DNA of 48,269 nt from an uncultured Bacteroidales bacterium. GTDB lineage: Bacteria > Bacteroidota > Bacteroidia > Bacteroidales > Paludibacteraceae. The translations under genes were made by a program, and so were the position numbers. The notes under the pieces are model-generated. The model saw only the letters and a list, made by a program, of their open reading frames with translations. It did not search any database and was not told the origin of the DNA. Location: NCBI GenBank assembly GCA_902774185.1, contig CACYHE010000022.1, positions 1 through 48,269 on the forward strand, read 5' to 3'. Shown here in pieces: positions 3,120 to 48,020 of this stretch (the stretch's first letter is position 1; each line of letters starts with the position of its first letter).

Positions 3120-3214
3120 TGTCTTTTGTCTTTTGTCTTTTGTCTTTTATCTTTTATCTTTTATCTTTTATCTTTTATCTCTTATCTTTTATCTCTTATC
3201 TTTTATCTCTAATC
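3120..3214. repeat. Heptanucleotide tandem repeat TCTTTTG/TCTTTTA
   Basis: About 13 units of seven bases, the first ones TCTTTTG and the rest TCTTTTA with some TCTCTTA. The repeat extends into the 3' end of the alkaline phosphatase gene on the minus strand, supplying its last codons (R-D-K-R) and stop. Confidence 0.9.
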
Positions 3215-4602
3215 GCCTTCCTCATCAGCGGAACGATCTCTGTATTATCGTGCCAACCGCTGAGCAGTTGTGCGTTCGGACCAATAGAGAAGATAGGTAC
3301 TGCGTGTGCACTGTGCGCGTAAGTCGTCCAACCTACATGCGCTTTCTTGTTCAGCAGCGCCAGACCCTTATCGCCTAACTTATTGATGGACTTATACATT
3401 GTCTTAGTGCTCTTCGTCTTACCCTTGCAAGCAGCCTTGTAGAGATCTTTCAGTTTGGCTTCTTCCTCTTTGGTGATCTCTACGTCCTCCCAGAAACCTA
3501 AATACTGCCGATAGATGGCTTGTACCTGTTCCCAACTCGGTTTCTTGTTCTCTTTGAATAACTGCGTGAACGCGTCACTCAGTACCCATGACGAACATTT
3601 CTGGTACTGCAGTTGATCCAAGTGCAGCGTATAATCGCTATTACCCAATGCCAAACCGCCTGTCTCATGGTCTGCTGTCACAACAATCAAAGTCTCATCC
3701 GGATGAGCCAAATAGAAGTCATAAGCCACCTGCATCGCTTCGTTCATGTCCCATACCTCACCGAAAGCCGTAGCTGCATCGTCGCCGTGACACGCATAGT
3801 CGATCATTCCGCCTTCTACCATCATAAAGAATTTCTCATGACGCGCCTCTAAGAACGGAACAGCAACACGCACAATCTGATTCAGCGTCAAGTCGCCTTC
3901 TTTGCGGTCGATGGCATAGGTCAGGTTACTGCCATGCTTCGCACCCTGATCATCGTCTTTCTGTACAAGGATGAGTTTGCTGATTTCTGATTGCTGAAGA
4001 CGGATAGCTTCTTCGTATCCATGAGCCACCGTGTACCCTGCTTGCTCGGCATTGCGGTACAGGTTGATCTCTTGGTCATCATCCTTGCCCTGCGGGTAAT
4101 GGAAACCGGCGCCGCCGAAGAAGTCAAAACCGCTTTCTGCTAACTGCAGACCGATCTCATAGTACTTATCCCGGTCATCCACATGTCCGTAGAAAGCACC
4201 CGGTGTAGCATGGTCGATGGCTACCGTCGTCATGATACCGATACCCCAGCCCTCTGCCTTCAACTCTTCGGCAATAGTGGTCAGACGGGCACTGTCCTGG
4301 TCCAGACCTAACATCCCGTTCTTGGTCTTCGTGCCGGTAGCCAGACAGGTACCGGCAGCAGCCGAATCGGTGATGCCGTTCGTCTTCGAATAACTGGACG
4401 CATGGCCCGAATAGGGGAAGGTCGTCATCAAGGTCTGTACGCGACCTAAAGGCTCACCCGCCAAGGCGGAACGATACATTTCTGCACCTAACACTTGGTT
4501 GGAACCCATACCGTCTCCGATAAAATAGAATACGTACTTAATTTCCGCGCTTACGGCGAGGGCTACGATGAGTAGCGTCGCCAGAAGGATTGTTTTTTTC
4601 AT
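3196..4602 (-). CDS. phoA: Alkaline phosphatase (PhoA family), secreted
   Basis: A 468-residue phosphomonoesterase with an N-terminal signal peptide (MKKTILLATLLIVALAVSA). Visible active-site elements are FYFIGDGMG (Asp30, metal ligand), ITDSAAAGT with the nucleophilic Ser80, IDHATPGAFYGHV, VEGGMIDYACHGDD and VVTADHETGGL; together these are diagnostic for the alkaline phosphatase superfamily and suggest a two-zinc plus magnesium site. It would release phosphate from organic esters in the periplasm or outside. It is last of three minus-strand genes, overlaps the 3' end of the exonuclease frame by 65 bases, and has no recognisable promoter of its own, so it may depend on readthrough. Its C-terminus (RDKR) comes from a heptamer repeat tract. 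Confidence 0.92.
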   Translation of the reverse strand: MKKTILLATLLIVALAVSAEIKYVFYFIGDGMGSNQVLGAEMYRSALAGEPLGRVQTLMTTFPYSGHASSYSKTNGITDSAAAGTCLATGTKTKNGMLGLDQDSARLTTIAEELKAEGWGIGIMTTVAIDHATPGAFYGHVDDRDKYYEIGLQLAESGFDFFGGAGFHYPQGKDDDQEINLYRNAEQAGYTVAHGYEEAIRLQQSEISKLILVQKDDDQGAKHGSNLTYAIDRKEGDLTLNQIVRVAVPFLEARHEKFFMMVEGGMIDYACHGDDAATAFGEVWDMNEAMQVAYDFYLAHPDETLIVVTADHETGGLALGNSDYTLHLDQLQYQKCSSWVLSDAFTQLFKENKKPSWEQVQAIYRQYLGFWEDVEITKEEEAKLKDLYKAACKGKTKSTKTMYKSINKLGDKGLALLNKKAHVGWTTYAHSAHAVPIFSIGPNAQLLSGWHDNTEIVPLMRKAIRDKR

Positions 4603-5455
4603 ATAGTTTCGTTTTTATACTTTCAGCTTTCGACTTTATACTTTCCGCTTTCGACTTTATACTTTCCGCTTTCTTCTGCTGTTGCCGATGCCGTTTGCGT
4701 TTGCGTGCCTCGCGTCTTCTTTCCCGTTGATGTTCCTCCCGCTCTTCAGGTGTCAAATGAGTTGGCGGTTCAATCCCCTGTTCCCTCAACCGCTGGTCCT
4801 GTATCTCCTGCTGATGGGCGATCATCCGTTCTTTCTCTTCCGCCTTCATCGCTTCCACCTGCTTGGGATCCAAGGTCTCGTGTGCCAACAGATCCTCGTA
4901 GATCAGCAAGGTTGCCCATGCGTCGGTACTTGCATAACGTGCCTGCTCTGGCGTTAAGTGACTGTTCTCCCAGTTGGTTAACTGCTGGGTCTTCGATATC
5001 TTCTTACCGAAACAGATGGCGAAGATCTTCTGCAATCCCATCTCCAGGATACCGTACTTCGCTACCATCGACTGTACGTCCACGCAGTTGGCCGGCACGA
5101 AGTTACGTCTTCTCCTCAGTCCGTTGATGTCATCCCGGAACGCCAACCCAACCTTGCAGATACTCGGGTCCGCAAACAGATCTGCCAACTCCTGCGGCAT
5201 GCCTACATGCGTCAACCGAAACAGGTAACAGCGTTCGTGACTCGCTACCTGTACCAAGGCGGTAGGGTAGTGGGTTCCGCGTTGAAAACTGGGACGTGCC
5301 TCCGTATCGACACCCAACACAGACTGCGTACGCAGATAGGCAACCGCCTCGGCAACCTGCTCCGGCTTGTCCACCACGATCACCTCTCCCTCAAATGCCG
5401 CTACAGGCATCACCTGTACCAACTCCTTACTGATATGTTGAATATATTCTTTCAA
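4538..5455 (-). CDS. 3'-5' exonuclease, DEDDy superfamily (RNase D-like)
   Basis: The 305-residue protein carries the DEDDy exonuclease domain at ~25-195: GVDTEA (Asp50, Glu52), FRDDING (Asp108/109) and YASTD (Tyr174, Asp178), the four acidic residues plus tyrosine of the RNase D/WRN-like fold. It probably trims RNA or DNA 3' ends; the substrate cannot be told. It follows a DUF5063 gene by 24 bases, an order I know from other Bacteroidota. After ~200 the protein becomes highly charged (REEHQRERRREARKRKRH) and then repeats KAESIKS three times. That tail is encoded by a heptamer array at 4614-4676 and runs on 65 bases into phoA, so the natural C-terminus is probably repeat-derived and variable. 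Confidence 0.85.
   Translation of the reverse strand: MKEYIQHISKELVQVMPVAAFEGEVIVVDKPEQVAEAVAYLRTQSVLGVDTEARPSFQRGTHYPTALVQVASHERCYLFRLTHVGMPQELADLFADPSICKVGLAFRDDINGLRRRRNFVPANCVDVQSMVAKYGILEMGLQKIFAICFGKKISKTQQLTNWENSHLTPEQARYASTDAWATLLIYEDLLAHETLDPKQVEAMKAEEKERMIAHQQEIQDQRLREQGIEPPTHLTPEEREEHQRERRREARKRKRHRQQQKKAESIKSKAESIKSKAESIKTKLYEKNNPSGDATHRSPRRKRGN
4614..4676. repeat. Array of nine TTTNNNC heptamers (three 21-bp units)
   Basis: Read on the plus strand: TTTATAC, TTTCAGC, TTTCGAC, TTTATAC, TTTCCGC, TTTCGAC, TTTATAC, TTTCCGC, TTTCTTC. On the minus strand it lies just upstream of phoA and codes for the KAESIKS repeats at the end of the exonuclease. Confidence 0.9.
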
Positions 5456-5492
5456 TTTTCAACTTTCAATTTTCAACTTTCAATTTTCATTT
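5451..5492. repeat. Heptamer repeat TTCAATT/TTCAACT, six units
   Basis: Alternating TTCAATT and TTCAACT units fill the gap between the DUF5063 gene and the exonuclease gene. On the minus strand they supply the last codons and stop of the DUF5063 protein (G-E-N-E-N-stop). Confidence 0.9.
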
Positions 5493-5992
5493 TCCCCTAA
5501 GGCATGTAAAGCGCGCATTACTGCGATCAGTTTTTGTCCCCAATGTTCCTCGAATGCTTCGCGACAAGCAACCACCGCATCGTTCATGATCGGTTCTTCT
5601 CCTGTCTGAAAAGCAGCAGCCAAGTCTTTCAACTCCTGATAGATATCGGCCATCCCTTCGGATATATAGGCGGTCTGAACCTCGTCCGTGTAGATCCCCC
5701 GATCGACAAACACATCCAGATACGCATCGTCCGAACCCAACAGGTTACGAACACCTACCAAGGCGTAGTTATAGTCCTCTTCCGTCACAAAACGCTGCGG
5801 CTCTTCCTCTTCCATCATTCGCTCTGCAGGCTCCAGCAAGCGTGTCCGCAGATAGAGTACCGGCAATATCCGAAGAACCTGCTCCCGCCATTCGTCACGA
5901 TCGTACTCACTGCTTTTCTCTACCAACAGGCAGGTCTGCGCTGCGGCGGTCACAAAAGCAATCGTACTGTCCTTATAAATATAATTTTGCAT
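5480..5992 (-). CDS. DUF5063 domain-containing protein
   Basis: A 170-residue acidic, mostly helical cytoplasmic protein with no signal peptide (MQNYIYKDSTIAFVTAAAQT). The pattern FVTAAAQTCLLVE near the start, YNYALVGVRNLLGSDD in the middle and AFEEHWGQKLIAVMRALHAL near the end fits the DUF5063 family of Bacteroidota as I recognise it. Its function is unknown. In other members of the phylum it commonly sits next to a DEDDy exonuclease and an RlmI-type methyltransferase; here the exonuclease follows directly and the methyltransferase is about 12 kb away. It is transcribed from a divergent promoter shared with the coiled-coil gene at 6105. The C-terminal GENEN is encoded by the heptamer repeat. 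Confidence 0.7.
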   Translation of the reverse strand: MQNYIYKDSTIAFVTAAAQTCLLVEKSSEYDRDEWREQVLRILPVLYLRTRLLEPAERMMEEEEPQRFVTEEDYNYALVGVRNLLGSDDAYLDVFVDRGIYTDEVQTAYISEGMADIYQELKDLAAAFQTGEEPIMNDAVVACREAFEEHWGQKLIAVMRALHALGENEN

Positions 5993-6104: not shown

Positions 6105-6746
6105 ATGAAAAAATTCGTTTTATCGGCCTTTATGGCATTGAGCATGGTTGCTGTAGCACAGACAGTAACACCTATTACTTTCGAAGTTGCTGAGTTTAAA
6201 AAGGACTCTTTGCGTACCCTCTACATCTCTGAGCCGCCTATGTATCGCGCAGCTTTGGATATGGTAGAGAAAGCATTGGACAAGAACATTGAGGACCTCA
6301 AGAAGGCAAAAGCAGAACTCAAAGTGGAGCAGACCTTGGCGAAGGAGATGAAGAACTCGCTTGTGCAGGCTACCAAGATGACCGCTTCGATGAAGAAACT
6401 CTATTCCAAAGAGGAGGGGGAACTCAAATCGATGCAGAAAGTGATCGAGGGTCAGCAGAAGATGTTGAATAAGCAGAAAGACCTCAATCAGGAGAGTCGT
6501 GAAGCGTATATGGCTTTCCTCGAGAACCAGCAGAAGGAACTCGGTTACTCGATTCGCGAAGTAGCAGAGCGTCAACGTGCCGTATCCGAACTGGAGACAG
6601 CCGTACAAAACAGCCAAACACAACTGCAGACCTACAACCAGCAGATCACCAACAAAGCTGCTGAGTTGGCACGTATGGAGGCACAGATCAAAGAGTTGCT
6701 CACCAGCCTCAAAGCAGAGCAGAAAGCAGCCAAGGCACTTCAATAA
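6105..6746 (+). CDS. Secreted coiled-coil protein of unknown function
   Basis: The ATG at 6105 opens a signal peptide (MKKFVLSAFMALSMVAVAQT) and is preferred over the in-frame start at 6060, which lies in the promoter. The mature part (~195 residues) is rich in Lys, Glu and Gln with heptad-like spacing from ~45 to the end, so it is a periplasmic coiled coil. I do not recognise a named family. It is the first gene after the divergent promoter and is followed by upp after a gap filled with the AATCCCT repeat. A structural or chaperone-like envelope role is possible but is only inferred from composition. Confidence 0.7.
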   Translation: MKKFVLSAFMALSMVAVAQTVTPITFEVAEFKKDSLRTLYISEPPMYRAALDMVEKALDKNIEDLKKAKAELKVEQTLAKEMKNSLVQATKMTASMKKLYSKEEGELKSMQKVIEGQQKMLNKQKDLNQESREAYMAFLENQQKELGYSIREVAERQRAVSELETAVQNSQTQLQTYNQQITNKAAELARMEAQIKELLTSLKAEQKAAKALQ

Positions 6747-6779
6747 TCCCTAATCCCTAATCTCTAATCCCTAATCCCT
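6745..6779. repeat. Heptamer repeat AATCCCT, five units
   Basis: Five units (one AATCTCT) occupy nearly the whole gap between the coiled-coil gene and upp; the first unit overlaps the stop codon. Confidence 0.9.
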
Positions 6780-7466: not shown

Positions 7467-7473
7467 ATCTTAT

Positions 7474-7830
7474 ATGGTCTATCTACCCGCCGTGCTCGTC
7501 ACGGCGGGTATTGCTATTCTGAGCCTCACGGAAAGCAGTCACATGCCTTCCGTATCCGTCAATGATAAACTGATACACGGTTTGATGTATGGCGTGTTGG
7601 CGGTTTCATGGCTTATCCCTCTCTTGCGCACATGCCCGCACGTACGTACCTATTTATATGTGTGCGCAAGTGCCACAATGTATGGAGCGCTGATGGAAAC
7701 CTTGCAGCGTTTCTGCACCCTCACCCGTTCCGGCGAGATTGCCGACCTCCTGGCGGATTTCATCGGCGTTGCCATCGGCATCGGCATCGTAGCGCTGCTA
7801 AAATGGCTAAATAGCTCAATGACTAAATAA
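7474..7830 (+). CDS. VanZ-like family membrane protein
   Basis: A 118-residue protein with about four transmembrane segments. DKLIHGLMYGVLA and YGALMETLQRF followed by GEIADLLADFIGVAIG are the typical VanZ-like signatures (His and Glu in membrane context). The family includes VanZ, linked to teicoplanin resistance, but most bacterial members are uncharacterised, so no specific role is assigned. The last codons and stop (S-M-T-K-stop) abut the 22-bp repeat that precedes dprA. Confidence 0.8.
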   Translation: MVYLPAVLVTAGIAILSLTESSHMPSVSVNDKLIHGLMYGVLAVSWLIPLLRTCPHVRTYLYVCASATMYGALMETLQRFCTLTRSGEIADLLADFIGVAIGIGIVALLKWLNSSMTK

Positions 7831-7883
7831 ATGGTACATGGTAAATGACCAAATGGTACATGGTAAATGACCAAATGGTAAAT
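7829..7883. repeat. 22-bp tandem repeat carrying dprA start codons
   Basis: Two exact copies of a 22-bp unit beginning AAATGGTACATGG (7829-7850, 7851-7872) plus a partial third. They contain several ATG codons in the dprA frame. A close relative of the same unit precedes queA at 40500-40535. Confidence 0.9.
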
Positions 7884-12085: not shown

Positions 12086-12712
12086 ATGGAAATAATATTA
12101 GGTTCTCAAAGCCCTCGTCGTCGCGAATTAATGGCAGGTTTAGACCTGCCCTTTACGGCAATCACCATCGATGCCGACGAGTCGTATCCTGCTGATTTGC
12201 AGGCAGGTGACATTCCTTATTTCATCTCTCGTGCCAAGGCACAAGCCTATGCCCCGAAACTCCAACCGAACCAACTGCTTATCACCGCAGATACCATCGT
12301 TTGGGTGGACGGTCATATGCTCGGTAAACCACATGATGCCGACGAAGCCTGCGCCATGCTCCGTGCCCTCAGCGGCAAAACCCATCAAGTCTATACCGCC
12401 GTCACCTTTGCTAGGAAGCTTCCAACTATGGACTCTCCACTAGAAGGCTTCTCTCAACTCTCAACTCTCAACTCTCAACTTGTTTTATCGACGTTAGTCG
12501 ATTGTACGCATGTGACATTTGCAGAATTAACCGACGCTGAGATCGACTATTATGTCTCTCATTACCGTCCTTTCGATAAAGCCGGTGCCTATGGAGTGCA
12601 GGAATGGATCGGTTACATCGCTTGTACCGGAATGAACGGTTCTTATTTCAACGTCATGGGCTTCCCCGTCCATCTCGTCTATCAGTATCTCAAGGACCAT
12701 TTCGAGTTTTAA
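12086..12712 (+). CDS. maf: Maf family nucleoside triphosphate pyrophosphatase
   Basis: House-cleaning pyrophosphatase that hydrolyses non-canonical NTPs such as dTTP/UTP analogues. The 208-residue product starts at ATG 12086 with MEIILGSQSPRRREL (the SxxRR motif), and has ITADTIV (catalytic Asp69), GKP (80-82), SGKTHQVYTAV and YGVQEWIGYIACTGMNGSY, all typical of Maf. Between VTFAR (~110) and CTHVTF (~140) there is an extra ~27-residue loop containing SQLSTLNSQL; it is encoded partly by four exact CTCAACT heptamers. Loss or gain of one heptamer would shift the frame and remove the C-terminal third. Confidence 0.92.
   Translation: MEIILGSQSPRRRELMAGLDLPFTAITIDADESYPADLQAGDIPYFISRAKAQAYAPKLQPNQLLITADTIVWVDGHMLGKPHDADEACAMLRALSGKTHQVYTAVTFARKLPTMDSPLEGFSQLSTLNSQLVLSTLVDCTHVTFAELTDAEIDYYVSHYRPFDKAGAYGVQEWIGYIACTGMNGSYFNVMGFPVHLVYQYLKDHFEF
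12453..12480. repeat. Four exact CTCAACT heptamers within maf
   Basis: Perfect 4 x 7 bp array in frame in maf, coding for part of the SQLSTLNSQL loop. The same peptide words appear in the coiled-coil protein at 38115 (QQLSTLNSQLSE). Confidence 0.95.
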
Positions 12713-12717
12713 AAATA

Positions 12718-12765
12718 TGCACTGAGAAAAGTGAGATTTCTCAGAATTCTCACAATTCTCATGCA
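12718..12765. repeat. TGCA-bounded inverted array, period 9
   Basis: Units such as GTGAGATTT and CTCACAATT repeat every 9 bases, with the first half the imperfect reverse complement of the second; ends are TGCACTGAG and CTCATGCA. Confidence 0.75.
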
Positions 12766-12771
12766 ATTTTT

Positions 12772-12830
12772 TGCATGGCGATATTGACGATTTTGGCGAT
12801 ATCGCCAATATCGCCACTTTCGCCAGTGCA
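12772..12830 (+). terminator. TGCA-bounded inverted array, probable maf terminator
   Basis: Period-9 units (GGCGATATT/GCCAATATC) face each other around the perfect palindrome TTGGCGATATCGCCAA at 12793-12808; the outer ends are TGCATGGCG and CGCCAGTGCA. Seven T follow directly, as in a rho-independent terminator. Confidence 0.75.
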
Positions 12831-17528: not shown

Positions 17529-18020
17529 ATGGCTAAATACATTATCATGGCAGAGGATGGTGAACGCGTTTTGTTGGACAAGGCGCGGGAACAACTGGGC
17601 TTGGATCTGAGTGATGCAACCCTCCTATATACGGGCGTGGGCGCGATAAATATCATAAGGAGTTTGCAGAATCTCGATCGAGACGCAGAACTATATAATA
17701 TCGGCTATGCCGGTAGTGCGAACTTCGATCTCGGTACCTGGGTAGAGGTTACCGAAGTGCGCCTCAACCATCCCAATGTGACGTACAAGGAACCCGAGTT
17801 GAAAATCTCAAATTTCAAATCTCAAATCTCAAATTGCCGTCAGGCCATCTGCTATTCCAATACCGATTTTGTACTGGCATCGGATTATAGAGATTGCGTC
17901 TTTGATATGGAATTGGCATATATTGCTGCGCTGGGCTTCAAGAACCTGCACTCGCTCAAATATGTAAGCGATAATCTATCGCTACACGCCTACCATGATT
18001 TAACCCACGGAGTAGAATGA
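17529..18020 (+). CDS. Nucleoside phosphorylase/MTA-SAH nucleosidase-like protein
   Basis: A short (163-residue) member of the nucleoside phosphorylase I fold. YTGVGAINIIRSL (~34-46), NIGYAGS (~57-63) and VFDMELAYIA (~124-133, the D-M-E ribose/purine-binding motif) mark the family. Full-length MTA/SAH nucleosidases are about 230 residues, so this is a reduced form and its substrate is uncertain. Residues ~91-102 (LKISNFKSQISN) are an extra loop encoded by four TCTCAAA-type heptamers. The stop overlaps the rlmI start (ATGA), so the two are translationally coupled. Confidence 0.7.
   Translation: MAKYIIMAEDGERVLLDKAREQLGLDLSDATLLYTGVGAINIIRSLQNLDRDAELYNIGYAGSANFDLGTWVEVTEVRLNHPNVTYKEPELKISNFKSQISNCRQAICYSNTDFVLASDYRDCVFDMELAYIAALGFKNLHSLKYVSDNLSLHAYHDLTHGVE
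17806..17833. repeat. Four TCTCAAA-type heptamers in frame
   Basis: TCTCAAA, TTTCAAA, TCTCAAA, TCTCAAA inside the nucleosidase-like gene; nearly identical to the array in the THUMP methyltransferase at 40195-40222. Confidence 0.95.
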
Positions 18021-19345
18021 CCACCATCTCTCTAAAACCGCATAAAGAGGAGTCCCTCAAACGCTTTCACCCTTGGGTGTTTAGCGGAGCGATTGCACGT
18101 GTTGTATTGGATGCAAAGCACAAAGGCGACGCCCCCGAAGAAGGTGAACTCGTTTGTGTGCGTTCGGCAGCGAACGAGGTCCTCGGTGTCGGTCATTGGC
18201 AAGTAGGTAGCATCGCCGTACGAATCTTGGCGTTCGGCGTGGAAGAGTTACCGAAGGATTTTTGGGCAGAACGTATCCGTGCCGCGTACCAAGTGAGGGA
18301 GGCGATCGGGTTGGTAAGGATTCCGAATAATCCGAATAATCCGAATATTCCGAATAACACCTTCCGCCTTATTCACGGCGAAGGCGATTTCCTTCCCGGA
18401 CTCATCGTCGATGTCTATGCCGATACGGCGGTGGTACAAGCCCATTCGGTAGGTATGCATGTCTGCCGGAACGAGATAGCCGAGGCGCTTATAGCCGAAG
18501 TGCCGCAAGTGAAGAACGTCTATTATAAGTCCGATGATACCCTGCCGTTCAAAGCTCCCATCGAAGGCGAGAAGGTCGGCTGGCTCAAACGACATCAAAC
18601 CATTTCAAACGATGTCAAACGACATCAAACAATTTCAAACGATGTCAAACAACTTCAAACCATTTCAAACGATGTCAAACAATCTCAAACAGCCGAAGAA
18701 TACTGGTCCATCGAAAACGGTCTTTCCTTCCGCATCGATTGGTTGAGAGGACAGAAGACGGGTTTCTTTGTCGATCAACGGGAGAACAGGGCGCTCGTAG
18801 AACGCTATGCGAAGGACAAAGACGTGCTGAATATGTTCTGCTATACCGGCGGGTTCTCCTTATATGCCCTGCGAGGCGGTGCGAAGTGCGTGGACTCGGT
18901 CGATGTAAGCCAGAAAGCAATCGACCTGGTGAATATCAACGTGGCGCGTAATTTTCCCGATGCCACGAACCATAGAGCCGTTGCTGCTGACGCGTTTGAG
19001 TATCTGAGCCAACAGAAAGCGGAAGGCAAGACTTATGATCTCATTATCTTGGATCCTCCGGCTTTTGCCAAACATCGTGACGCGGTAAAGAATGCCTTAC
19101 GTGGCTATCAGCGCATCAATGCCAAGGCGATAGAGATGATTCGCCCGGGAGGAATATTGTTTACCTTCTCTTGCTCACAGGCTGTGGATAAAGAGGCCTT
19201 CCGTCTGGCGGTGTTCAGTGCGGCCGCACAGGTAGGGCGCAAAGTAAGGATCTTGCATCAGTTGCATCAACCGCAAGACCACCCCATAAACATCTATCAC
19301 CCCGAAGGGGAATATCTGAAGGGACTTGTGCTTTATGTGGAATAA
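18017..19345 (+). CDS. rlmI: Class I SAM-dependent rRNA (cytosine-5) methyltransferase, RlmI type
   Basis: N-terminal PUA domain (LKRFHPWVFSGAI, ~14-26) and C-terminal Rossmann methyltransferase with KTGFFVDQRENR, the SAM-binding MFCYTGGFSLYA (~275-286) and the catalytic LDPPAFAKHR (~345-354) identify an RlmI/YccW-like enzyme that methylates 23S rRNA. At 442 residues it is longer than the usual ~390-400 because of two repeat-encoded inserts: IPNNPNNPNIPNN (~102-114, 9-bp units) and a decapeptide repeat RHQTISNDVK (~190-224, 10-bp units) between the PUA/EEHEE part and the catalytic domain. It overlaps the upstream gene by 4 bases. Confidence 0.9.
   Translation: MTTISLKPHKEESLKRFHPWVFSGAIARVVLDAKHKGDAPEEGELVCVRSAANEVLGVGHWQVGSIAVRILAFGVEELPKDFWAERIRAAYQVREAIGLVRIPNNPNNPNIPNNTFRLIHGEGDFLPGLIVDVYADTAVVQAHSVGMHVCRNEIAEALIAEVPQVKNVYYKSDDTLPFKAPIEGEKVGWLKRHQTISNDVKRHQTISNDVKQLQTISNDVKQSQTAEEYWSIENGLSFRIDWLRGQKTGFFVDQRENRALVERYAKDKDVLNMFCYTGGFSLYALRGGAKCVDSVDVSQKAIDLVNINVARNFPDATNHRAVAADAFEYLSQQKAEGKTYDLIILDPPAFAKHRDAVKNALRGYQRINAKAIEMIRPGGILFTFSCSQAVDKEAFRLAVFSAAAQVGRKVRILHQLHQPQDHPINIYHPEGEYLKGLVLYVE
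18321..18356. repeat. Four 9-bp units TTCCGAATA/ATCCGAATA in rlmI
   Basis: In-frame array coding for a P-N-N tripeptide repeat. Same words on the coding strand of murI near 23909-23945. Confidence 0.95.
18581..18690. repeat. Eleven decamers N4-TCAAAC within rlmI
   Basis: Eleven consecutive 10-bp units in which TCAAAC is invariant and the four bases before it vary (tggc, gaca, catt, gatg, gaca, aatt, gatg, aact, catt, gatg, aatc). They encode the repeated RHQTISNDVK segment. Confidence 0.97.
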
Positions 19346-19350
19346 CAACC

Positions 19351-19396
19351 TCAAACGACCTCAAACGACATCAAACGACATCAAACAATTTCAAAT
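19351..19396. repeat. TCAAAC-N4 array between rlmI and the exonuclease
   Basis: Four TCAAAC units with spacers gacc, gaca, gaca, aatt and a final TCAAAT merging with the ATG of the next gene. The spacers are the same words as in the rlmI array. Confidence 0.93.
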
Positions 19397-22161: not shown

Positions 22162-22225
22162 GTTTGAAGGTTTGAAAGTTTGAGGGTTTTCAAACGATAT
22201 CAAACAACCTCAAACAATCTCAAAC
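22162..22225. repeat. Head-to-head GTTTGA/TCAAAC array before sufB
   Basis: Three GTTTGA units (22162, 22170, 22178; period 8) face four TCAAAC units (22190, 22200, 22210, 22220; period 10). The arms are complementary and could fold as a hairpin in DNA or RNA. Confidence 0.9.
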
Positions 22226-22236: not shown

Positions 22237-23688
22237 ATGGATTCGGTCATAAAAGACATAACGGAACAGGAGTACAAGTACGGCTTCACCACGGACGTGG
22301 AGACGGAAATTGTACCGGCAGGACTGAACGAGGATATCGTTCGGTTGATTTCGGCGAAGAAAAACGAACCGGAATGGTTGCTGGAGTTCCGCTTGAAAGC
22401 TTTCCGTAAATGGCAAACCATGCCGCTTCCTACTTGGGCACACTTAGACATCCCCGAGATTGATTTCCAAGCGATATCGTACTATGCTGCGCCAAAGACC
22501 AAATCGCAAATGTCAAATGACAAATCACAAATGTCGAATGACATTGATCCCGAGATCATGAAGACCTTCGATAAACTCGGTATTCCTTTGGAGGAACGGG
22601 CAGCGTTGGCAGGAAACATGGCAGTAGATGCGGTCATGGATTCGGTATCCGTGAAGACGACCTTCCGTGAGACCTTGGCGGAGAAGGGCATCATCTTCTG
22701 TTCGATTTCCGAAGCGGTACGCGAATATCCGGATTTGGTTCAAAAATACCTCGGCAGTGTCGTCCCTCCGACCGATAATTTCTATGCGGCGTTGAACTCG
22801 GCGGTCTTCTCGGATGGTTCTTTTGTCTATGTTCCGAAAGGCGTTCGGTGTCCGATGGAACTAAGTACCTATTTCCGTATCAATGCCGGTAATACGGGGC
22901 AGTTTGAACGGACATTACTGATTGCCGATGAAGGAGCATATCTGTCTTATTTAGAGGGATGTACAGCGCCGATGAGGGATGAGAACCAGTTGCATGCAGC
23001 GATCGTGGAAATCGTAGTGCATAAGGATGCGGAAGTGAAGTATTCGACTGTCCAGAACTGGTATCCTGGTGACAAGAACGGTAAAGGCGGTATCTATAAT
23101 TTTGTGACCAAACGCGGTATCACGCACGAGAATGCACGGCTCAGTTGGACGCAAGTGGAGACGGGTAGTGCCATCACATGGAAATACCCAAGTTGTATTC
23201 TGCGAGGAGATAACTCCAGTGCTGAGTTCTATTCGGTTGCGGTAACCAATAACTACCAACAAGCCGATACAGGAACCAAGATGATTCATATCGGTAAGAA
23301 TACGCGCTCACGCATCGTATCGAAAGGTATCTCTGCCGGACATAGTCAGAATGCGTATCGAGGTCTGGTGAAGATGGGCGCGAAGGCGGAGAATGCCCGC
23401 AATTACAGTCAGTGTGACAGTCTGTTGTTGGGCGACAAATGCGGTGCGCACACCTTCCCGGATATGATCATCATGAATCCGACGGCGACGGTAGAGCACG
23501 AAGCAACAACCAGTAAGATCAACGAAGATCAACTCTTTTATTGCCAGCAACGCGGCATCGGATTGGAAGATGCAGTAGGATTGATCGTAAACGGATACGC
23601 CAAAGAGGTGATGGACAAACTGCCGATGGAATTTGCAGTCGAAGCCCAGAAACTCTTACAAGTTTCGCTCGAAGGAAGCGTCGGCTAA
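22237..23688 (+). CDS. sufB: Fe-S cluster assembly scaffold protein SufB
   Basis: Scaffold of the SUF iron-sulfur assembly complex, acting with SufC and SufD. The ATG at 22237 ([17 protein letters not shown]) matches SufB starts; the longer frame from 22180 would translate the repeat. The 483-residue product shows [55 protein letters not shown] and [10 protein letters not shown] (a conserved Cys-His segment near the C-terminus), typical of SufB. Residues ~89-102 are a duplicated KSQMSND encoded by two 21-bp units. sufC, sufD and sufS are not adjacent, unlike the common sufBCDS order, and the next gene is convergent murI. Confidence 0.93.
22501..22542. repeat. Two 21-bp units in frame within sufB
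   Basis: AAATCGCAAATG... and AAATCACAAATG..., 21 bases each with two differences, encoding KSQMSND twice in an N-terminal loop. Confidence 0.92.
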
Positions 23689-28640: not shown

Positions 28641-30014
28641 ATGGCAAAGCCAACCATCCAATATGTCTGTTCGTCCTGTGGGGCTAAAGCTCCGCAGTTA
28701 TTAGGTCGTTGTCCGGTTTGCGGCGAATGGGGCACGTATGAAGAGGAAGTCCTACAGCGAAGCGGTCTTTCAGCGAAGCGGTCTTTCAGCGAACGCGGTC
28801 TTACAGGCGAAGCCGGTGTTCCTCAACGTCTTCAAGACGTGGTCGCTACCGAAGAGATGCGGATTGACATGCACAATGGTGAGTTGAACCGTGTGTTGGG
28901 TGGAGGTCTGGTACCGGGCAGTCTGGTGTTGTTGGGAGGAGAACCGGGTATCGGTAAATCGACCTTGGCATTACAAGTGCTCATGCAGTTAGGCGAACGC
29001 AAGACTTTGTACGCTTCAGGCGAAGAGAGTGTCCGGCAACTGAAGTTACGTGCAGAGCGTCTGGCGGGAAATGCGGAGAACCTGTACATATCCAGCGAGA
29101 CCTCATTGGAACGCATCTTGGAGCAGGTGAAAGAGATCGAACCCGAAGTGGTGGTGATCGACTCTATTCAGACGATAGGTACCGAGGCGATCGATGCCTC
29201 GATAGGTTCGTTGAGCCAGGTACGTGAGTGCGCAGCGCGTATCTTGGAGTTCGCCAAGACACGTAATATCCCGTTCTTTATCATCGGACATATCAATAAA
29301 GAGGGTTCGTTGGCGGGACCGAAAGTACTGGAGCATATCGTGGATACAGTCCTTCAGTTTGAGGGTGATCAGCAGTATATGTACCGCATCCTGCGTGCGC
29401 AGAAGAACCGTTTTGGTTCCACGGCGGAATTAGGTATCTACGAGATGCGGCAGGACGGTTTGCGCGAAGTGACGAACCCGTCGGAGTTGTTGCTTTCTAC
29501 GGCACGGGAAGGATTGAGCGGTATAGCCATCGCTGCGGCTGTGGAAGGGGTACGACCGTTCTTGATTGAGGTACAAGCGCTGGTCTCAAGTGCCGCCTAT
29601 GGTACACCACAACGTTCTTCTACCGGTTTTGACGGCAGACGACTGAATATGTTACTGGCGGTATTGGAGAAACGGGTAGGGTTTAAGTTACTGCAGAAAG
29701 ATGTGTTCCTCAATATAGCGGGCGGACTTCGGGTACAAGATCCGGCGATAGACTTGGCGGTTCTGGCAGCGGTATTGAGCAGTAACATGGATATAGCATT
29801 GGATGCAGGTACTTGTCTCTGCGGCGAAGTGGGTCTGGCAGGTGAGATACGGTCGGTGAACCGTATAGAGCAGCGCATACAAGAGGCGCAGAAATTGGGA
29901 TTCAAACGGATTATGATTCCGGCAGAACAGAAAGTGGATAGTTCGCGTTTTAAAATAGAGATTGTGCCGGTGAAGAAAGTGACGGACGCCTTTAGAATGC
30001 TGATTAAAGGATGA
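28641..30014 (+). CDS. radA: DNA repair protein RadA
   Basis: A RecA-like ATPase that promotes branch migration in recombination. The ATG at 28641 (MAKPTIQYVCSSCGA) is used instead of the upstream TTG. An N-terminal zinc finger (Cys10, Cys13, Cys24, Cys27), Walker A GEPGIGKST (~99-107), the RadA-specific KNRFG motif and a C-terminal Lon-like domain are present; 457 residues is normal. Between the finger and the ATPase, the segment RSGLSAKRSFSERGL is encoded by three to four copies of a 16-bp unit (28755-28820). The stop overlaps the porG start (ATGA). Confidence 0.94.
   Translation: MAKPTIQYVCSSCGAKAPQLLGRCPVCGEWGTYEEEVLQRSGLSAKRSFSERGLTGEAGVPQRLQDVVATEEMRIDMHNGELNRVLGGGLVPGSLVLLGGEPGIGKSTLALQVLMQLGERKTLYASGEESVRQLKLRAERLAGNAENLYISSETSLERILEQVKEIEPEVVVIDSIQTIGTEAIDASIGSLSQVRECAARILEFAKTRNIPFFIIGHINKEGSLAGPKVLEHIVDTVLQFEGDQQYMYRILRAQKNRFGSTAELGIYEMRQDGLREVTNPSELLLSTAREGLSGIAIAAAVEGVRPFLIEVQALVSSAAYGTPQRSSTGFDGRRLNMLLAVLEKRVGFKLLQKDVFLNIAGGLRVQDPAIDLAVLAAVLSSNMDIALDAGTCLCGEVGLAGEIRSVNRIEQRIQEAQKLGFKRIMIPAEQKVDSSRFKIEIVPVKKVTDAFRMLIKG
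28755..28820. repeat. 16-bp repeat in frame within radA
   Basis: CAGCGAAGCGGTCTTT at 28755-28770 and 28771-28786, a near copy at 28787-28802 and a degenerate fourth. They encode the linker after the zinc finger. Confidence 0.9.
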
Positions 30015-40499: not shown

Positions 40500-40535
40500 T
40501 AAATGGTACATGGTAAATGAAGAAATGGTAAATCA
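40500..40535. repeat. AAATGGTACATGGTAAATG repeat carrying the queA start
   Basis: Same words as the dprA leader repeat (7829-7883). ATG codons at 40510 and 40525 are in the queA frame. Confidence 0.85.
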
Positions 40536-41760
40536 ACCAATCTATATCGCCGATTATAACTACCCCTTACCCGACGAGCGTATCGCCAAATATCCGCTGC
40601 CGGAACGTGACCATAGTAAACTGCTGGTCTATCGGGATGGGCAGGTGAGCGAAGACCGTTTTTACAATATAGGGGATTATATTGCCCCGAATGCGCTCCT
40701 TATATATAATAATACGCGCGTGATACAAGCGCGTTTGGAGTTTCATAAACCTACCGGAGCACGCATTGAGGTATTCTGCTTGGAACCCCTTACTCCCCAT
40801 GACTATCAACTGTCGTTGGGCTCCACCACCGGTTGTACATGGAAATGTATGGTGGGTAACGCCAAGAAATGGCACGATAGTGACGTGATAAAATTGCAAA
40901 TCACCAATCACCAATCACCAATTACCATTTGTGCGCATAAAGAGGCACAAATTGGTAACACCTTCGCCGTTCGCTTTGAATGGGACGAAGAGAACGTCTC
41001 TTTTGCTGAGATCTTGGATGCGGCAGGCGAGTTGCCTATCCCTCCGTATCTGAACCGCAAGACCGAGGAATCGGATTTGCGTACGTACCAGACCGTTTAT
41101 TCACGAATCAAAGGTTCCGTTGCAGCGCCTACAGCCGGGCTGCATTTTACGGAGAAAGTCCTGGATGATATCCACTCTCGCGGTATAGAGACAGATGAAG
41201 TAACGCTCCATGTGGGTGCCGGTACTTTCCTTCCCGTTAAAACCGCAGATGCCAATGAGCACGTAATGCATACGGAAATCATTGCCGTACCACGTGAGAC
41301 AATTGCACATATTCAAGCTAAATTGGGGCACATCGTAGCTGTTGGTACCACCTCCATGCGTACCCTCGAATCACTCTATTTTATCGGAGCAAAACTTCGT
41401 GATGTTGAGATGTCGAAATCTAATAATCTCGAGATTCACGTCGGTCAGTTCGAACCCTATGAGGAGGCTTTCGACTTTCGACTTTCGACTTTCGACTCTT
41501 TACAGGCCATTCTTGACTATCTGGATGCAACCGGTCAGACGACACTACATGCGGAAACGCAGATCATGATCAAACCCGGTTATACCTTCCATGTGGTGGA
41601 TCAACTCATCACCAATTTTCACCAACCGCAATCCACCTTGCTTTTGCTGGTAAGTGCTTTTGTGGATGGAGACTGGCATACAATCTACGATTATGCCCTC
41701 TCTCATGACTTTCGTTTCCTCTCCTACGGAGACAGTTCCATCCTTAATCGTAAATCGTAA
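40510..41760 (+). CDS. queA: S-adenosylmethionine:tRNA ribosyltransferase-isomerase
   Basis: Adds the epoxycyclopentanediol precursor in queuosine synthesis at the tRNA wobble position. DYNYPLPDERIAKYPLPERDHSKLLVY, NNTRVIQARL, GSVAAPTAGLHFT, LHVGAGTFLPVK, VGTTSMRTLESL and TNFHQPQSTLLLLVSAF are QueA hallmarks. At 416 residues it is longer than the usual ~350 (two repeat inserts: LQITNHQSPITI at 40900-40927 and FDFRLSTFDS at 41469-41496). The start is uncertain: the first residues MVNEEMVNQP come from the upstream repeat, and the last residues NRKS from the downstream one. Confidence 0.93.
   Translation: MVNEEMVNQPIYIADYNYPLPDERIAKYPLPERDHSKLLVYRDGQVSEDRFYNIGDYIAPNALLIYNNTRVIQARLEFHKPTGARIEVFCLEPLTPHDYQLSLGSTTGCTWKCMVGNAKKWHDSDVIKLQITNHQSPITICAHKEAQIGNTFAVRFEWDEENVSFAEILDAAGELPIPPYLNRKTEESDLRTYQTVYSRIKGSVAAPTAGLHFTEKVLDDIHSRGIETDEVTLHVGAGTFLPVKTADANEHVMHTEIIAVPRETIAHIQAKLGHIVAVGTTSMRTLESLYFIGAKLRDVEMSKSNNLEIHVGQFEPYEEAFDFRLSTFDSLQAILDYLDATGQTTLHAETQIMIKPGYTFHVVDQLITNFHQPQSTLLLLVSAFVDGDWHTIYDYALSHDFRFLSYGDSSILNRKS
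40900..40927. repeat. Four ATCACCA heptamers in queA
   Basis: ATCACCA three times then ATTACCA, 28 bases, in frame. Confidence 0.95.
41469..41496. repeat. Four exact TTTCGAC heptamers in queA
   Basis: Perfect 4 x 7 bp array in frame. The word TTTCGAC also occurs in the array at 4614-4676. Confidence 0.97.
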
Positions 41761-41777
41761 ATCGTCCAATCGTAAAT
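41745..41777. repeat. AAATCGT heptamer repeat between queA and tatD
   Basis: TAATCGT, AAATCGT, AAATCGT, CCAATCGT, AAAT then ATG of tatD; supplies the queA stop and last codons. Same words as 9013-9046. Confidence 0.88.
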
Positions 41778-42584
41778 ATGATAGATACGCATTGTCACAT
41801 AGATGAAGAAGCTTTCGATGCCGATCGCGAAGAAGTAATCGCGCGTCAGAAGGAGAGTGGAGTAGAGGCAATGATTGTGCCCGGAGTCAATGTGGCATCT
41901 ATAGAAACGGTGCTACAGGTATGCCACGCGCATCCCGGTTATTGCTATCCCGCTTTGGGCTTGCATCCGGAGGATGTGAAAGCTGATTGGCAAGAACAAC
42001 TGGCGGTCGTAGAAGCAGCGATTCGTGCTCACCGGGACGAGTTGGTCGCAATAGGTGAGATAGGACTCGATTATTATTGGGATAAGACCTACAAAGAAGA
42101 ACAGAAAGAAGTCCTTCGTCGTCAACTGCTCTTGGCAGCGGAGTTGGACCTGCCTGTCATCCTCCATAACCGTGAAGCTACCGAAGACATCCTGAACATC
42201 GTAAAAGAAATCGTCAATTGTCAATCGTCCAATCCTCAATTGTCTGGTGTGTTCCATTGTTTCAATGGCAGTAAAGAAACGGCGCAGCAAATTCTTGACC
42301 TCGGTTTCTATCTTGGTATCGGCGGCGTCCTCACTTTCAAAAACTGTAAGTTAGGAGAAACGTTGCAAGAACTTCAAATGTCAAACAAATATCAAATATC
42401 AAATCGTCTCGTTCTCGAGACGGACGCACCCTATATGGCTCCTGTTCCGCATCGGGGAGAACGCAATGAAAGCCGATTCATGATCCATGTGGCAGAACGA
42501 TTGGCGCAGGTGTATAATTGCACTATAGAGGACATGATTTCTGCAACAACAGCCAATGCAAAACGACTTTTTCGGCTAAAATAA
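41778..42584 (+). CDS. tatD: TatD family metal-dependent hydrolase
   Basis: A 268-residue TIM-barrel phosphodiesterase/DNase of the amidohydrolase superfamily. Metal-binding motifs: MIDTHCHIDEEAF (His5, His7), GEIGLDYYW (Glu), PVILHNREA (His), FHCFNGS (His) and LETDAPYMAP (Asp). Family members have been linked to DNA repair and tRNA or protein quality control; the biological role here is not determined. Two inserts look repeat-derived: IVNCQSSNPQLSG (42212-42244) and LQMSNKYQISNR (~42373-42403). Confidence 0.9.
   Translation: MIDTHCHIDEEAFDADREEVIARQKESGVEAMIVPGVNVASIETVLQVCHAHPGYCYPALGLHPEDVKADWQEQLAVVEAAIRAHRDELVAIGEIGLDYYWDKTYKEEQKEVLRRQLLLAAELDLPVILHNREATEDILNIVKEIVNCQSSNPQLSGVFHCFNGSKETAQQILDLGFYLGIGGVLTFKNCKLGETLQELQMSNKYQISNRLVLETDAPYMAPVPHRGERNESRFMIHVAERLAQVYNCTIEDMISATTANAKRLFRLK
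42212..42244. repeat. CGTCAAT/TGTCAAT heptamers in tatD
   Basis: CGTCAAT, TGTCAAT, CGTCCAA, TCCTCAA, TTGTC; a degenerate in-frame array. Confidence 0.82.
42373..42403. repeat. TCAAA-type repeat in tatD, second site
   Basis: TTCAAATG, TCAAACAA, ATATCAA, ATATCAA before ATCGTCTC; in frame. Confidence 0.8.
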
Positions 42585-43674: not shown

Positions 43675-43751
43675 GTTTGAAATGGTTTGAGATAGTTTGA
43701 GGGGTTGAGACAATGTCAAACACTATCAAACAACATCAAACAACATCAAAC
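43675..43751. repeat. Head-to-head GTTTGA/TCAAAC array, period 10
   Basis: GTTTGA at 43675, 43685, 43695 and TTGAGA at 43705 face TCAAAC at 43716, 43726, 43736, 43746. Period 10 in both arms; the arms are mutually complementary. Confidence 0.93.
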
Positions 43752-43775
43752 AAACAATTTAAAATTCTGAGCAAT

Positions 43776-46300: not shown

Positions 46301-46308
46301 GATTTTTT

Positions 46309-46334: not shown

Positions 46335-46337
46335 GGT

Positions 46338-47099: not shown

Positions 47100-47100
47100 A

Positions 47101-47135
47101 AAATCTTAAATCTTAAATTTTAAATCTTAAATAAC
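47101..47135. repeat. AAATCTT heptamer repeat
   Basis: AAATCTT, AAATCTT, AAATTTT, AAATCTT, AAATAAC: leader of the PnuC-like gene on the minus strand. Confidence 0.85.
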
Positions 47136-47138
47136 AAT

Positions 47139-47164
47139 AAGGGCGGACACAATCGTCCGCCCTT
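47139..47164 (-). terminator. Terminator after rpmE2
   Basis: AAGGGCGGAC/GTCCGCCCTT stem, followed on the minus strand by a T-rich stretch. Confidence 0.85.
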
Positions 47165-47178
47165 GTTGTTGCCCGCAA

Positions 47179-47433
47179 TTACTTGCGCGTGCGGTTGCCG
47201 TAACGGGACATGAATTTGTCCACACGACCTGCGGTGTCCACGAGTTTGGACTTACCGGTGTAGAACGGGTGACTCGTGTTCGAGATCTCCAGCTTGATAA
47301 GCGGATACTTAACGCCGTCGATTTCGATCGTGTCCTTGGTAGCAGCTGTAGAGCGGCTGAAGAACTGAGTACCGTCAGACATATCTTTGAAAACTACTAC
47401 GCGGTAGTTATCAGGATGAATTCCAGCTTTCAT
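47179..47433 (-). CDS. rpmE2: 50S ribosomal protein L31 type B
   Basis: 84 residues, [19 protein letters not shown] opening, [25 protein letters not shown] and [13 protein letters not shown] are typical of the type B (zinc-free, no CxxC) form of bL31. It is next to rplI but separated by a head-to-head repeat array, and its own terminator follows. Confidence 0.95.
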
Positions 47434-47453
47434 AATTTAAATGAATTTAATTT

Positions 47454-47537
47454 GTTTGACATTGTTTGATATTGTTTGAGGGTTTGATGTCGTTAACTGA
47501 ATTAAACTATTTCAAACTACTTCAAACTATTTCAAAC
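47454..47537. repeat. Head-to-head GTTTGA/TCAAAC array between rpmE2 and rplI
   Basis: GTTTGA at 47454, 47464, 47474, 47482 face TTAAAC at 47502 and TCAAAC at 47512, 47522, 47532. Largely period 10, arms complementary. Confidence 0.92.
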
Positions 47538-47544
47538 TTTTCAA

Positions 47545-47988
47545 TTACTCAGCAACTACGTTGAGCTTAATGTCAGCTTTTACCTCACGATGCAGACGAG
47601 CCTGTGCGGTGTACTCACCAACCTGCTTGATCGGCTCAGCGATCGTGATCACCTTCTTGTCGATGATGATCTCGTTAGCTTTCAGCGCGTCAGCGATGTT
47701 TTGGGTGGTTACTGTACCGAAGATCTTACCGTCCTCGTTTGCTTTTACTTTAACCTCGATTACGGTCTCTGCCAACTTAGCCTCCAGAGCCTGAGCATCA
47801 GCCAGGATCTTAGCTGCCTTGTGAGCCTGCTGTTTGAGGTTCTCAGCCAGTTGCTTCTTGTTGCTTTCATTAGCGATGATAGCAATCTTCTGCGGCAACA
47901 GGTAGTTGCGTCCGTAGCCGTCACGTACTTTTACGATGTCGTTCTTGAAACCCAGATTAGCCAGGTCTTGAATCAAAATTACTTCCAT
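47545..47988 (-). CDS. rplI: 50S ribosomal protein L9
   Basis: 147 residues; MEVILIQDLANLGFKNDIVKVRDGYGRNYLLPQK is the bL9 N-domain, a long helix (~45-75) connects to the C-domain (FGTVTTQNIADALK, EYTAQARLHREVKADI). bL9 sits at the base of the L1 stalk. It follows rpsR in the usual rpsF-rpsR-rplI operon of the phylum; the short gap holds an ACTTTAA heptamer tract. Confidence 0.96.
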   Translation of the reverse strand: MEVILIQDLANLGFKNDIVKVRDGYGRNYLLPQKIAIIANESNKKQLAENLKQQAHKAAKILADAQALEAKLAETVIEVKVKANEDGKIFGTVTTQNIADALKANEIIIDKKVITIAEPIKQVGEYTAQARLHREVKADIKLNVVAE

Positions 47989-47997
47989 AATCTCTCA

Positions 47998-48020
47998 ACT
48001 TTAAACTTTAAACTTTAAAC
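47998..48020. repeat. ACTTTAA heptamer repeat between rpsR and rplI
   Basis: ACTTTAA three times plus AC, just upstream of the rplI start on the minus strand. Confidence 0.85.

What the first reader, a model, noticed from the sequence alone, without database searches (positions are those of the whole stretch)
3120..48020. A dense, window-wide system of 7-10 bp tandem repeats in gaps and inside core genes
More than 30 short arrays occur in 48 kb, with unit lengths of mainly 7, and also 8, 9 and 10 (sometimes 16, 21 or 22, where the 21s are three 7s). The same words recur at distant sites: TCAAAC-N4, ATCTCAA, AAATCGT, TTTCGAC, TCCGAATA, CTCAACT, GATATACC. They lie between co-directional genes right up to start codons, and in frame in at least eleven conserved genes as extra loops. 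Four units (28 bp) is the commonest in-gene size. This looks like an active process that creates or spreads short arrays, not random low complexity. Cyanobacterial STRR heptamers are the closest known parallel; I know no equivalent described for Bacteroidales with insertion into so many housekeeping genes.
Basis: partly seen in the sequence, partly recalled or inferred. Interest (0 to 1): 0.85.

Follow-up and report, generated by a model that had tools for sequence, protein, structure and literature searches.

The report
Shape-shifting seven-letter repeats inside bacterial genes
In one group of gut bacteria, short repeats of seven DNA letters sit inside many genes and in the gaps between genes, and related species carry different repeat words at the same spots, which points to a fast and still unexplained process that writes and rewrites them.

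Summary
In detail: 55 tandem arrays in the window (TRF score >=30; simulations average 6-8) and 38 at >=40 (simulations about 1). It is genome-wide and typical of one group of gut Paludibacteraceae. Period-7 arrays lie inside 43 of 334 genes of the own-genome sample and 50 of 343 of a relative's, against 1 of 135 and 0 of 181 in other Bacteroidales, although 7 is not a multiple of 3. Orthologous sites carry different heptamers in different species, or nothing. Between loci 81-96% identical, 28 of 53 site comparisons are empty in the partner; of 25 with arrays in both, 10 differ in word; gene sites keep frame in 26 of 29. Words coincide across a genome (0.034) more than between genomes (0.015) or after letter shuffling (0.004). 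No reverse transcriptase or Y1 transposase was found in the own genome; ExoVII, RecJ and MutS are present. Best reading: long simple-sequence repeats of unusual intensity, arriving mostly as blocks near 24-35 nt, partly moved by short-tract copying, filtered for frame and loop position. The generating step is inferred. New variant of a known kind.

The parts
3118..3208 (.). period-7 array TTTATCT/TTTGTCT, 13 copies, between convergent genes, reaching the 3' end of an alkaline phosphatase gene
4607..4673 (.). 21-mer array (three 7s), just before the start of the minus-strand gene 3196-4602
5449..5494 (.). period-7/14 array CTTTCAATTTTCAA at a gene boundary
6744..6779 (.). period-7 array TAATCCC from a stop codon into the gap
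7828..7883 (.). TAAATGG-type array (22-mer) over a stop codon and the start of dprA; holds the 21-mer found exactly at 10 places in the genome
9013..9045 (.). period-7 array AAATCGT in a gap
12451..12480 (.). period-7 array CTCTCAA inside a Maf-like gene
12734..12825 (.). period-9 arrays in a gap; 12776-12825 reads TGGCGATAT units then ATATCGCCA units (inverted)
17803..17834 (.). period-7 array AAATCTC inside gene 17529-18020; four relatives have other period-7-like words here
18322..18357 (.). period-9 array TCCGAATAA inside an RlmI-like methyltransferase gene; heptamers in G015 and G003, 27-nt shorter empty allele in G022 and G006
18585..18690 (.). TCAAAC-N4 10-mer array inside the same gene; absent in four relatives
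19344..19388 (.). TCAAAC-N4 array between genes; not found in four relatives
22162..22225 (.). inverted pair: GTTTGA 8-mers then TCAAAC-N4 10-mers, upstream of a sufBD-like gene
22500..22543 (.). period-7 array CAAATGA inside the SufB/D-like gene; CAACAGC-type array in G015, shorter alleles in G003, G022, G006
23910..23948 (.). period-9 array inside a racemase-like gene
24292..24320 (.). period-7/14 array GCTAATC inside the same gene; variable in four relatives
28755..28813 (.). 16-mer array CAGCGAAGCGGTCTTT inside a RadA-like gene; the same kind of sequence lies in another gene of L106
40193..40225 (.). period-7 array AAATCTC inside an RlmL-like gene; arrays in 11 genomes cluster at this site
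40500..40533 (.). TAAATGG-type array over the start of queA
40899..40927 (.). period-7 array AATCACC in queA, residues about 130-140, a predicted beta-hairpin tip; AATTACA, AATTAAA or no array in others
41468..41497 (.). period-7 array CTTTCGA in queA, residues about 320-330, a loop and the first turn of a helix; shared with G015
41746..41777 (.). period-7 array AATCGTA at the queA/tatD junction; arrays in 13 genomes cluster here
42209..42244 (.). period-7 array AATCGTC inside tatD; arrays in 11 genomes cluster here
43675..43753 (.). inverted pair of 10-mer arrays (GTTTGA side, TCAAAC side) between genes; heptamer-like sequence in G015, G022 and G006
47101..47132 (.). period-7 array AAATCTT near a gene start; related arrays in G003 and G006
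47452..47544 (.). inverted pair of 10-mer arrays (TTGTTTGACA / AAACTATTTC) between genes
47997..48021 (.). period-7 array AACTTTA near a gene start; shorter or different in G003 and G006

Best explanation
The arrays are a dispersed, fast-turning set of long simple-sequence repeats, mostly of period 7, in one group of gut Paludibacteraceae. Shown: genome-wide abundance; period-7 arrays in about 6-15% of sampled genes of five array-rich genomes and in gaps; gain, loss and word change at orthologous sites; frame kept; a genome-biased vocabulary shared by genes and gaps. Inferred: a new array is mostly laid down as a block in one step by replication- or repair-linked synthesis with a 7-nt phase (slippage or template switching), in part templated by arrays elsewhere in the cell; arrays are also exchanged by short-tract recombination, including between species at the same site; selection keeps those that preserve the frame, avoid stops and fall in tolerated loops or spacers. 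Most single arrays probably have no function of their own. My split: description 0.9, a trans-copying component 0.55, any specific enzyme below 0.25.
For: Excess over simulation; 43 of 334 and 50 of 343 genes against 1 of 135 and 0 of 181. In genes 75 period-7 segments against 14 of period 6 and 9 of period 8, commonest length bin 31-34 nt, while periods 9 and 12 decline with length; 239 of 303 in-gene arrays have periods that are not multiples of 3. Different words or none at orthologous sites. Of 53 site comparisons 28 none, 15 same, 10 different; gene sites in frame 26 of 29, gap sites 11 of 24; the partner segment holds an array in 45 of 74 rows against 4 of 444 random segments. Word coincidence 0.0337 within, 0.0153 between, block-permutation maximum 0.0235, letter shuffle 0.0040 and 0.0023. 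Genes and gaps share words: 227 of 8278 pairs, shuffled mean 28.9. One short-tract case: a 70-nt identical run in queA of L106 and L119, 73% identical overall, while L101, sister of L106, lacks it. 16 of 24 empty alleles show no seed.
Against: 8 of 24 empty alleles hold a seed within one mismatch against 2.4 by chance (maximum 7), so local slippage starts some arrays. Unit order is not inherited beyond permutation in G000, G003 and G006. Same-site words in different genomes are also more alike than unrelated ones (24% against 9.3%), so part of the pattern is plain inheritance. Genome-specific mutation bias of a kind not modelled could also give a vocabulary. Control loci are not free of arrays: 2.9-3.0 per 10 kb of any period, more than G003 (2.63); only period 7 sets the group apart. 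No generating enzyme was identified.
Confidence: 0.5

Rival explanations
1. Ordinary local slippage only: each array grows from its own seed by polymerase slippage with a 7-nt preference; genome-specific words reflect genome-specific mutation or slippage bias.
For: Heptamers are the commonest 5-11-nt repeat in most genomes, explained by polymerase contact length (Mrazek 2007 as told in PMC4679880). Seeds at 8 of 24 empty alleles against 2.4 by chance. Unit order not inherited in three of four genomes. Concerted one-base changes in L119/L123 fit slippage homogenisation.
Against: In-gene period-7 lengths peak rather than decline; 16 of 24 empty sites have no seed; words coincide across unrelated loci far above letter shuffle; single-unit steps would shift the frame.
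Confidence: 0.3
2. A mobile-element enzyme (reverse transcriptase, retron, DGR or REP-associated Y1 transposase) writes the arrays.
For: Seedless insertions and genome-specific words look templated.
Against: RT family PF00078 in 2 of 17 genomes, not in G000; Y1 family PF01797 in 7 of 17 (6 over cut-off), not in G000, G006 or G015. G000 is 87% complete, so a missed gene is possible. Cas1 and other integrases were not searched.
Confidence: 0.07
3. The arrays are binding sites of nucleic-acid-binding proteins, whose changing specificity drives the species-specific words.
For: TCAAACNAYN units keep eight positions nearly fixed over 51 units and occur as inverted pairs; period-11 arrays lie almost only outside genes (46 of 385 against 3 of 354).
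Against: Four genomes hold 113 different heptamer classes, too many for one factor; half of the period-7 arrays are inside genes with no positional preference.
Confidence: 0.08
4. Selection on protein loops alone produced low-complexity codons that look like arrays.
For: In-gene words mostly lack stops (55 of 183 contain one in circular reading) and are A-rich on the coding strand (131 to 31).
Against: Gaps carry the same words, and in-gene periods are mostly not multiples of 3 (239 of 303).
Confidence: 0.03
5. Assembly or binning artefact of one draft genome.
For: The genomes compared are nearly all metagenome assemblies.
Against: The pattern recurs in genomes from several separate projects, with frame kept.
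Confidence: 0.02

Closest known systems
Long simple-sequence repeats (LSSR, units 5-11 nt), Mrazek et al. 2007; seen only as described in PMC4679880
   Same: Tandem units of 5-11 nt beyond expectation, heptamers commonest, lineage-scattered.
   Different: [quoted passage not shown] here 239 of 303 in-gene arrays are not. Here orthologous sites change word.
TAACTGA heptamer repeats of Beggiatoaceae, Cyanobacteria and five Bacteroidetes (MacGregor 2015, PMC4679880; abstract, passages and sections 3 and 12 seen)
   Same: Heptamer direct repeats, often just before start codons; Paludibacter propionicigenes has two sets.
   Different: One fixed word, mostly intergenic; here 113 word classes in four genomes, none of them TAACTGA, and half in genes.
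GGGAATC and GGGGA(C/T)T heptamer arrays of Xanthomonas and Nostoc (PMC4692102; passages seen)
   Same: Heptamer arrays dispersed over the genome, four units the majority, fixed and variable unit positions.
   Different: One G-rich quadruplex-forming word per genome; here words are A-rich and only 13 of 360 have GGG or CCC.
Cyanobacterial STRR heptamers (recalled; one search gave listings only)
   Same: Tandem heptamers in gaps.
   Different: Recalled as mainly intergenic with few consensus words.
Rickettsia palindromic elements (recalled; one search gave listings only)
   Same: Dispersed repeats tolerated in frame inside conserved genes.
   Different: Recalled as longer palindromic elements, not tandem heptamers.

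Membership tests
LSSR (5-11-nt units) | Tandem repeats of 5-11 nt longer or more numerous than expected for the genome | tested here: met
LSSR (5-11-nt units) | Heptamers the most abundant class | tested here: met
LSSR (5-11-nt units) | In coding regions, units that are multiples of three most likely (an observed trend, not a defining rule) | tested here: not met
   64 of 303 are multiples of three
TAACTGA repeat family | The word TAACTGA | tested here: not met
   0 of 360 period-7 arrays in four genomes
Xanthomonas/Nostoc G4 heptamers | G-rich, quadruplex-capable unit | tested here: not met
   GGG or CCC in 13 of 360 words; GGGAATC in 0
Cyanobacterial STRR | Tandem heptamers mainly between genes (feature recalled) | tested here: not met
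   183 of 360 period-7 arrays lie in genes
Phase-variation (contingency) repeats | Copy-number change within a strain that switches a gene | not testable with these tools
   one genome per species; gene sites keep frame between species in 26 of 29
RT/DGR/retron or RAYT-driven repeats | The enzyme gene in the array-bearing genome | tested here: not met
   no PF00078 or PF01797 match in G000, 87% complete
Rickettsia palindromic elements | Long palindromic element (recalled) | not tested
   arrays are tandem by construction of the search; palindromy was not measured

The most novel reading that the evidence does not exclude
These bacteria have an unknown trans-acting process that copies 7-nt-phased sequence from array to array across the genome. 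Period 7 is then the shared register that lets unlike words pair, so each species drifts to its own dialect of heptamers, rewritten in place inside working genes, and proteins draw new loop sequence from a common pool of words.
Probability: 0.25. Interest if true: 0.92.

Novelty: new variant of a known kind. Interest (0 to 1): 0.74.

Why it matters
It is a natural system in which many array births, losses and word changes inside conserved proteins can be read across dozens of related species. That makes directly testable how tandem repeats are born, why seven is the favoured period in bacteria, and how much loop sequence a core enzyme tolerates. It is also a warning: in these genomes extra loops and spacer repeats are not by themselves evidence of function.

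Tried and rejected
Whole-array copying in trans was my first reading. The unit-permutation test supports it only in G015 (irregular arrays, k=24: 41 pairs, permuted mean 21.7, maximum 35), not in G000 (10 against 8.5), G003 (2 against 3.2) or G006 (4 against 6.1), so it was lowered to a vocabulary effect of unsettled cause. Loss of ExoVII, RecJ or MutS: rejected (14, 13 and 14 of 14 genomes; RecJ not found in G307, whose completeness is not given). RT or Y1 enzymes: not supported. Protein-level selection alone: rejected. Viral source: AATCACCx3 is in 12 viral contigs, six of them above 0.6 G+C; the 21-mer in none; not pursued. Coding-strand A-richness (131 to 31 in genes, against 1854 to 1572 for random coding 7-mers) was not used for mechanism, since hydrophilic loops could select it.

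The first QueA alignment was misoriented for minus-strand loci and replaced. One search aligned non-collinear flanks; its events there were not used. Outputs were cut by the tool, so sites in the cut part were not seen. One search left out window arrays before 17000. Rows dropped: arrays under 27 nt (324 kept); four loci that duplicate G genomes (L099, L101, L102, L110) and arrays whose flanks did not map; ten genome pairs taken as close, of which the tree shows that at least those joining L122 or L120 to L119 or L123, or to each other, are not sisters. In-56 sites are counted per pair, so sites of L104 enter against two partners and are not independent. Three of 29 gene-site length differences (2, 32, 5) are not multiples of 3; misplaced anchors are likely but were not checked one by one. 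Gene calls come from my own script. E. coli, phage-record and plasmid-record collections were not searched.
Full report
WHAT WAS CHECKED. The window is contig C22 of a 2.19-Mb draft genome, G000, 35 contigs, 87% complete. TRF finds 55 merged arrays at score 30 or more and 38 at 40 or more; Markov simulations of order 1-5 average 6-8 and about 1. Arrays sit in gaps, over stop and start codons, and inside genes such as Maf, an RlmI-like methyltransferase, SufB/D, a racemase, RlmL-like, QueA and TatD; 14 genes hold one of score 40 or more, two of them weakly.

GENOME-WIDE AND LINEAGE-SPECIFIC. A 448-kb sample of the own genome, window included, has 248 arrays at score 40 or more, 114 of period 7. 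Relatives have 121 (53 of period 7) in 460 kb (G003), 168 (77) in 460 kb (G006) and 241 (110) in 443 kb (G015). The nearest named records are Paludibacteraceae and 'Bacteroidales bacterium' metagenome assemblies, many with ruminant or horse-gut names (best 80 of 584 loci kept). With my gene caller, genes holding a period-7 array are 43 of 334 (G000), 50 of 343 (G015), 32 of 376 (G003), 30 of 357 (G006) and 21 of 323 (G307), against 1 of 135 in Paludibacter-like and 0 of 181 in other Bacteroidales loci; G011 and G016, same genus by the tool, have 0 of 44 each in 55-60 kb, G014 1 of 40. The controls are not free of arrays: 2.9-3.0 of any period per 10 kb, above G003 (2.63), and 0.43-0.59 of period 7; what sets the group apart is period 7 and its presence in genes. 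On a QueA tree, 21 of 28 rows of one supported clade (window included) have at least 1.0 period-7 array per 10 kb, against 9 of the 33 other rows. In 247 genomes of the order, AATCACCx3 with up to one mismatch occurs in 11, two of them G000 and a same-genus genome. The 21-mer TAAATGGTACATGGTAAATGA, with up to one mismatch, is in 22 of 61 same-genus genomes.

PERIOD AND SIZE. In genes a direct autocorrelation scan finds 75 period-7 segments against 14 of period 6 and 9 of period 8. The period-7 lengths do not fall off: the fullest bin is 31-34 nt (18 segments); the 15-17 bin (13) is partly chance (11 in the Markov control, genes and gaps together). Periods 9 and 12 decline with length, as stepwise slippage would give. 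Of 303 in-gene arrays with period up to 16, 239 have periods that are not multiples of 3. Growth one unit at a time would pass through frameshifts, so arrays in genes most likely arrive, or are exchanged, as blocks (inference).

SAME SITE, DIFFERENT WORD. The window from 17000 on was aligned with up to six relatives (part of the output was cut). At 17803 the own genome has AAATCTC, and G015, G003, G022 and G006 have TTAGCTG-, AATCAAC-, AATCTCC- and AGATTTC-like sequence. At 18322 a 9-mer array faces heptamers in two relatives and a 27-nt shorter empty allele in two. Some sites show no array in the relatives (25277 is such a case and probably no array at all). With 54 relatives mapped to the window, 22 of 40 site clusters hold period-7 arrays from two or more genomes, up to 13 at one site. 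In QueA the two arrays fall at a predicted beta-hairpin tip and in a loop running into a helix (mean pLDDT 72).

FAST TURNOVER. In twelve locus pairs 81-96% identical, 53 site comparisons give 28 with no array in the partner, 15 with the same word, 10 with a different word; length differences are multiples of 3 at 26 of 29 gene sites and 11 of 24 gap sites. An array is present in 45 of 74 partner segments against 4 of 444 random ones. One pair at 95.6% (L112, L113) has a 7-mer array in one and an array of period 8 (4 by another TRF row) in the other at the same gap. In L119 and L123 (91.6%) three units of one array differ by the same A/G change while the unit between them does not, and an 11-mer array differs at the same positions in unit after unit at constant length: concerted change within arrays, two examples.

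VOCABULARY. Words of arrays on different 20-kb stretches coincide at 0.0337 within a genome (556 of 16489 pairs) and 0.0153 between genomes (721 of 47197); permuting genome labels over 84 stretches reaches at most 0.0235. Letter-shuffled words give 0.0040 and 0.0023, random genomic 7-mers 0.0010. Genes and gaps share words. In the site data, words within one mismatch make up 20% of same-genome pairs (417), 24% of same-site pairs (262) and 9.3% of unrelated pairs (5735); 0 of 300 permutations reached either of the first two. So a word depends both on the site's history and on the genome. Unit order is not inherited beyond permutation in G000, G003 and G006 and is in G015. Of 24 empty alleles, 8 hold a seed of the partner's word within one mismatch, against 2.4 in random segments (maximum 7): some arrays start locally, two thirds show no seed.

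SHORT-TRACT EXCHANGE. L106 and L119 are 73% identical where aligned, yet share a 70-nt identical run in queA made of the same irregular AATTAAA array and near flanks; L122 shares 38 nt of it. L101, sister of L106 and 93-99% identical to it in the 150-nt blocks on both sides, lacks the array. Import of a short tract from another species explains this one case; its frequency is unknown. Flank identity minus the pair mean is -0.039 at different-word rows (18), -0.020 at empty rows (29), +0.008 at same-word rows (27) and +0.005 (sd 0.051) at random positions, which fits some such imports but is weak.

MECHANISM. No reverse transcriptase (PF00078) or Y1 transposase (PF01797) is found in G000; they occur in 2 and 7 of 17 genomes. 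ExoVII and MutS are present in 14 of 14 genomes, RecJ in 13, in array-rich and array-poor members alike. What remains most likely is replication- or repair-linked synthesis with a 7-nt phase, partly templated by existing arrays, plus short-tract exchange, then selection for frame, few stops (55 of 183 in-gene words contain a stop in circular reading, against 84 of 91 at gene ends) and loop position. The generating step is inference.

A SECOND CLASS. TCAAACNAYN 10-mers (134 overlapping three-core matches in G000, reversed control 3) keep TCAAAC by definition of the search, and A (50 of 51) and Y (51 of 51) at positions 8 and 9, while positions 7 and 10 vary. Three times in the window GTTTGA units face TCAAAC units. 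Period-11 arrays are nearly confined to gaps and gene ends (46 of 385 against 3 of 354 in genes). These may be protein-binding arrays phased near a helical turn; not tested.

LITERATURE. Searches on heptanucleotide repeats with Bacteroidetes, STRR, simple sequence repeats with slippage, palindromic elements, Paludibacteraceae with tandem repeats (no paper), heptamer repeats with concerted evolution and rumen Bacteroidales listed no description of such arrays in this group; only listed titles and abstract starts were seen, and most subscription papers are not held. I saw the abstract in part, passages and sections 3 and 12 of PMC4679880, passages of PMC4692102 and of PMC4060949. Mrazek 2007 was seen only as cited there.

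Noticed in passing
window 22162-22225, 43675-43753, 47452-47544; also 12776-12825: Arrays come as inverted pairs: GTTTGA-type units followed by TCAAAC-type units (and TGGCGATAT then ATATCGCCA), which could form hairpins or paired binding sites.
   Followed up: partly
four-genome sample: Period-11 arrays lie almost only outside genes (46 of 385 against 3 of 354 in genes), unlike period 7, which suggests a separate, perhaps helically phased, class.
   Followed up: partly
G130, G184 and G299 (reversed control): The control word CCACTAAx3 matched 54, 33 and 9 times in three other Bacteroidales genomes, so other lineages seem to have heptamer arrays with other words.
   Followed up: no
window 28755-28813; L106 near 7200-7600: A dispersed GTCAGCGAAGCGGTCT-type sequence sits in frame in different genes of different species and looks like another in-gene repeat family; CCTCCC...GGGAGG palindromes also sit in gene loops of some relatives.
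   Followed up: no
L278-L289 (viral contigs): Exact AATCACCx3 occurs in 12 viral contigs, six of them above 0.6 G+C, unlike this genome.
   Followed up: no
L177 (Bacteroidaceae MAG, 21 kb): A locus outside the group with six period-7 arrays in 21 kb.
   Followed up: no
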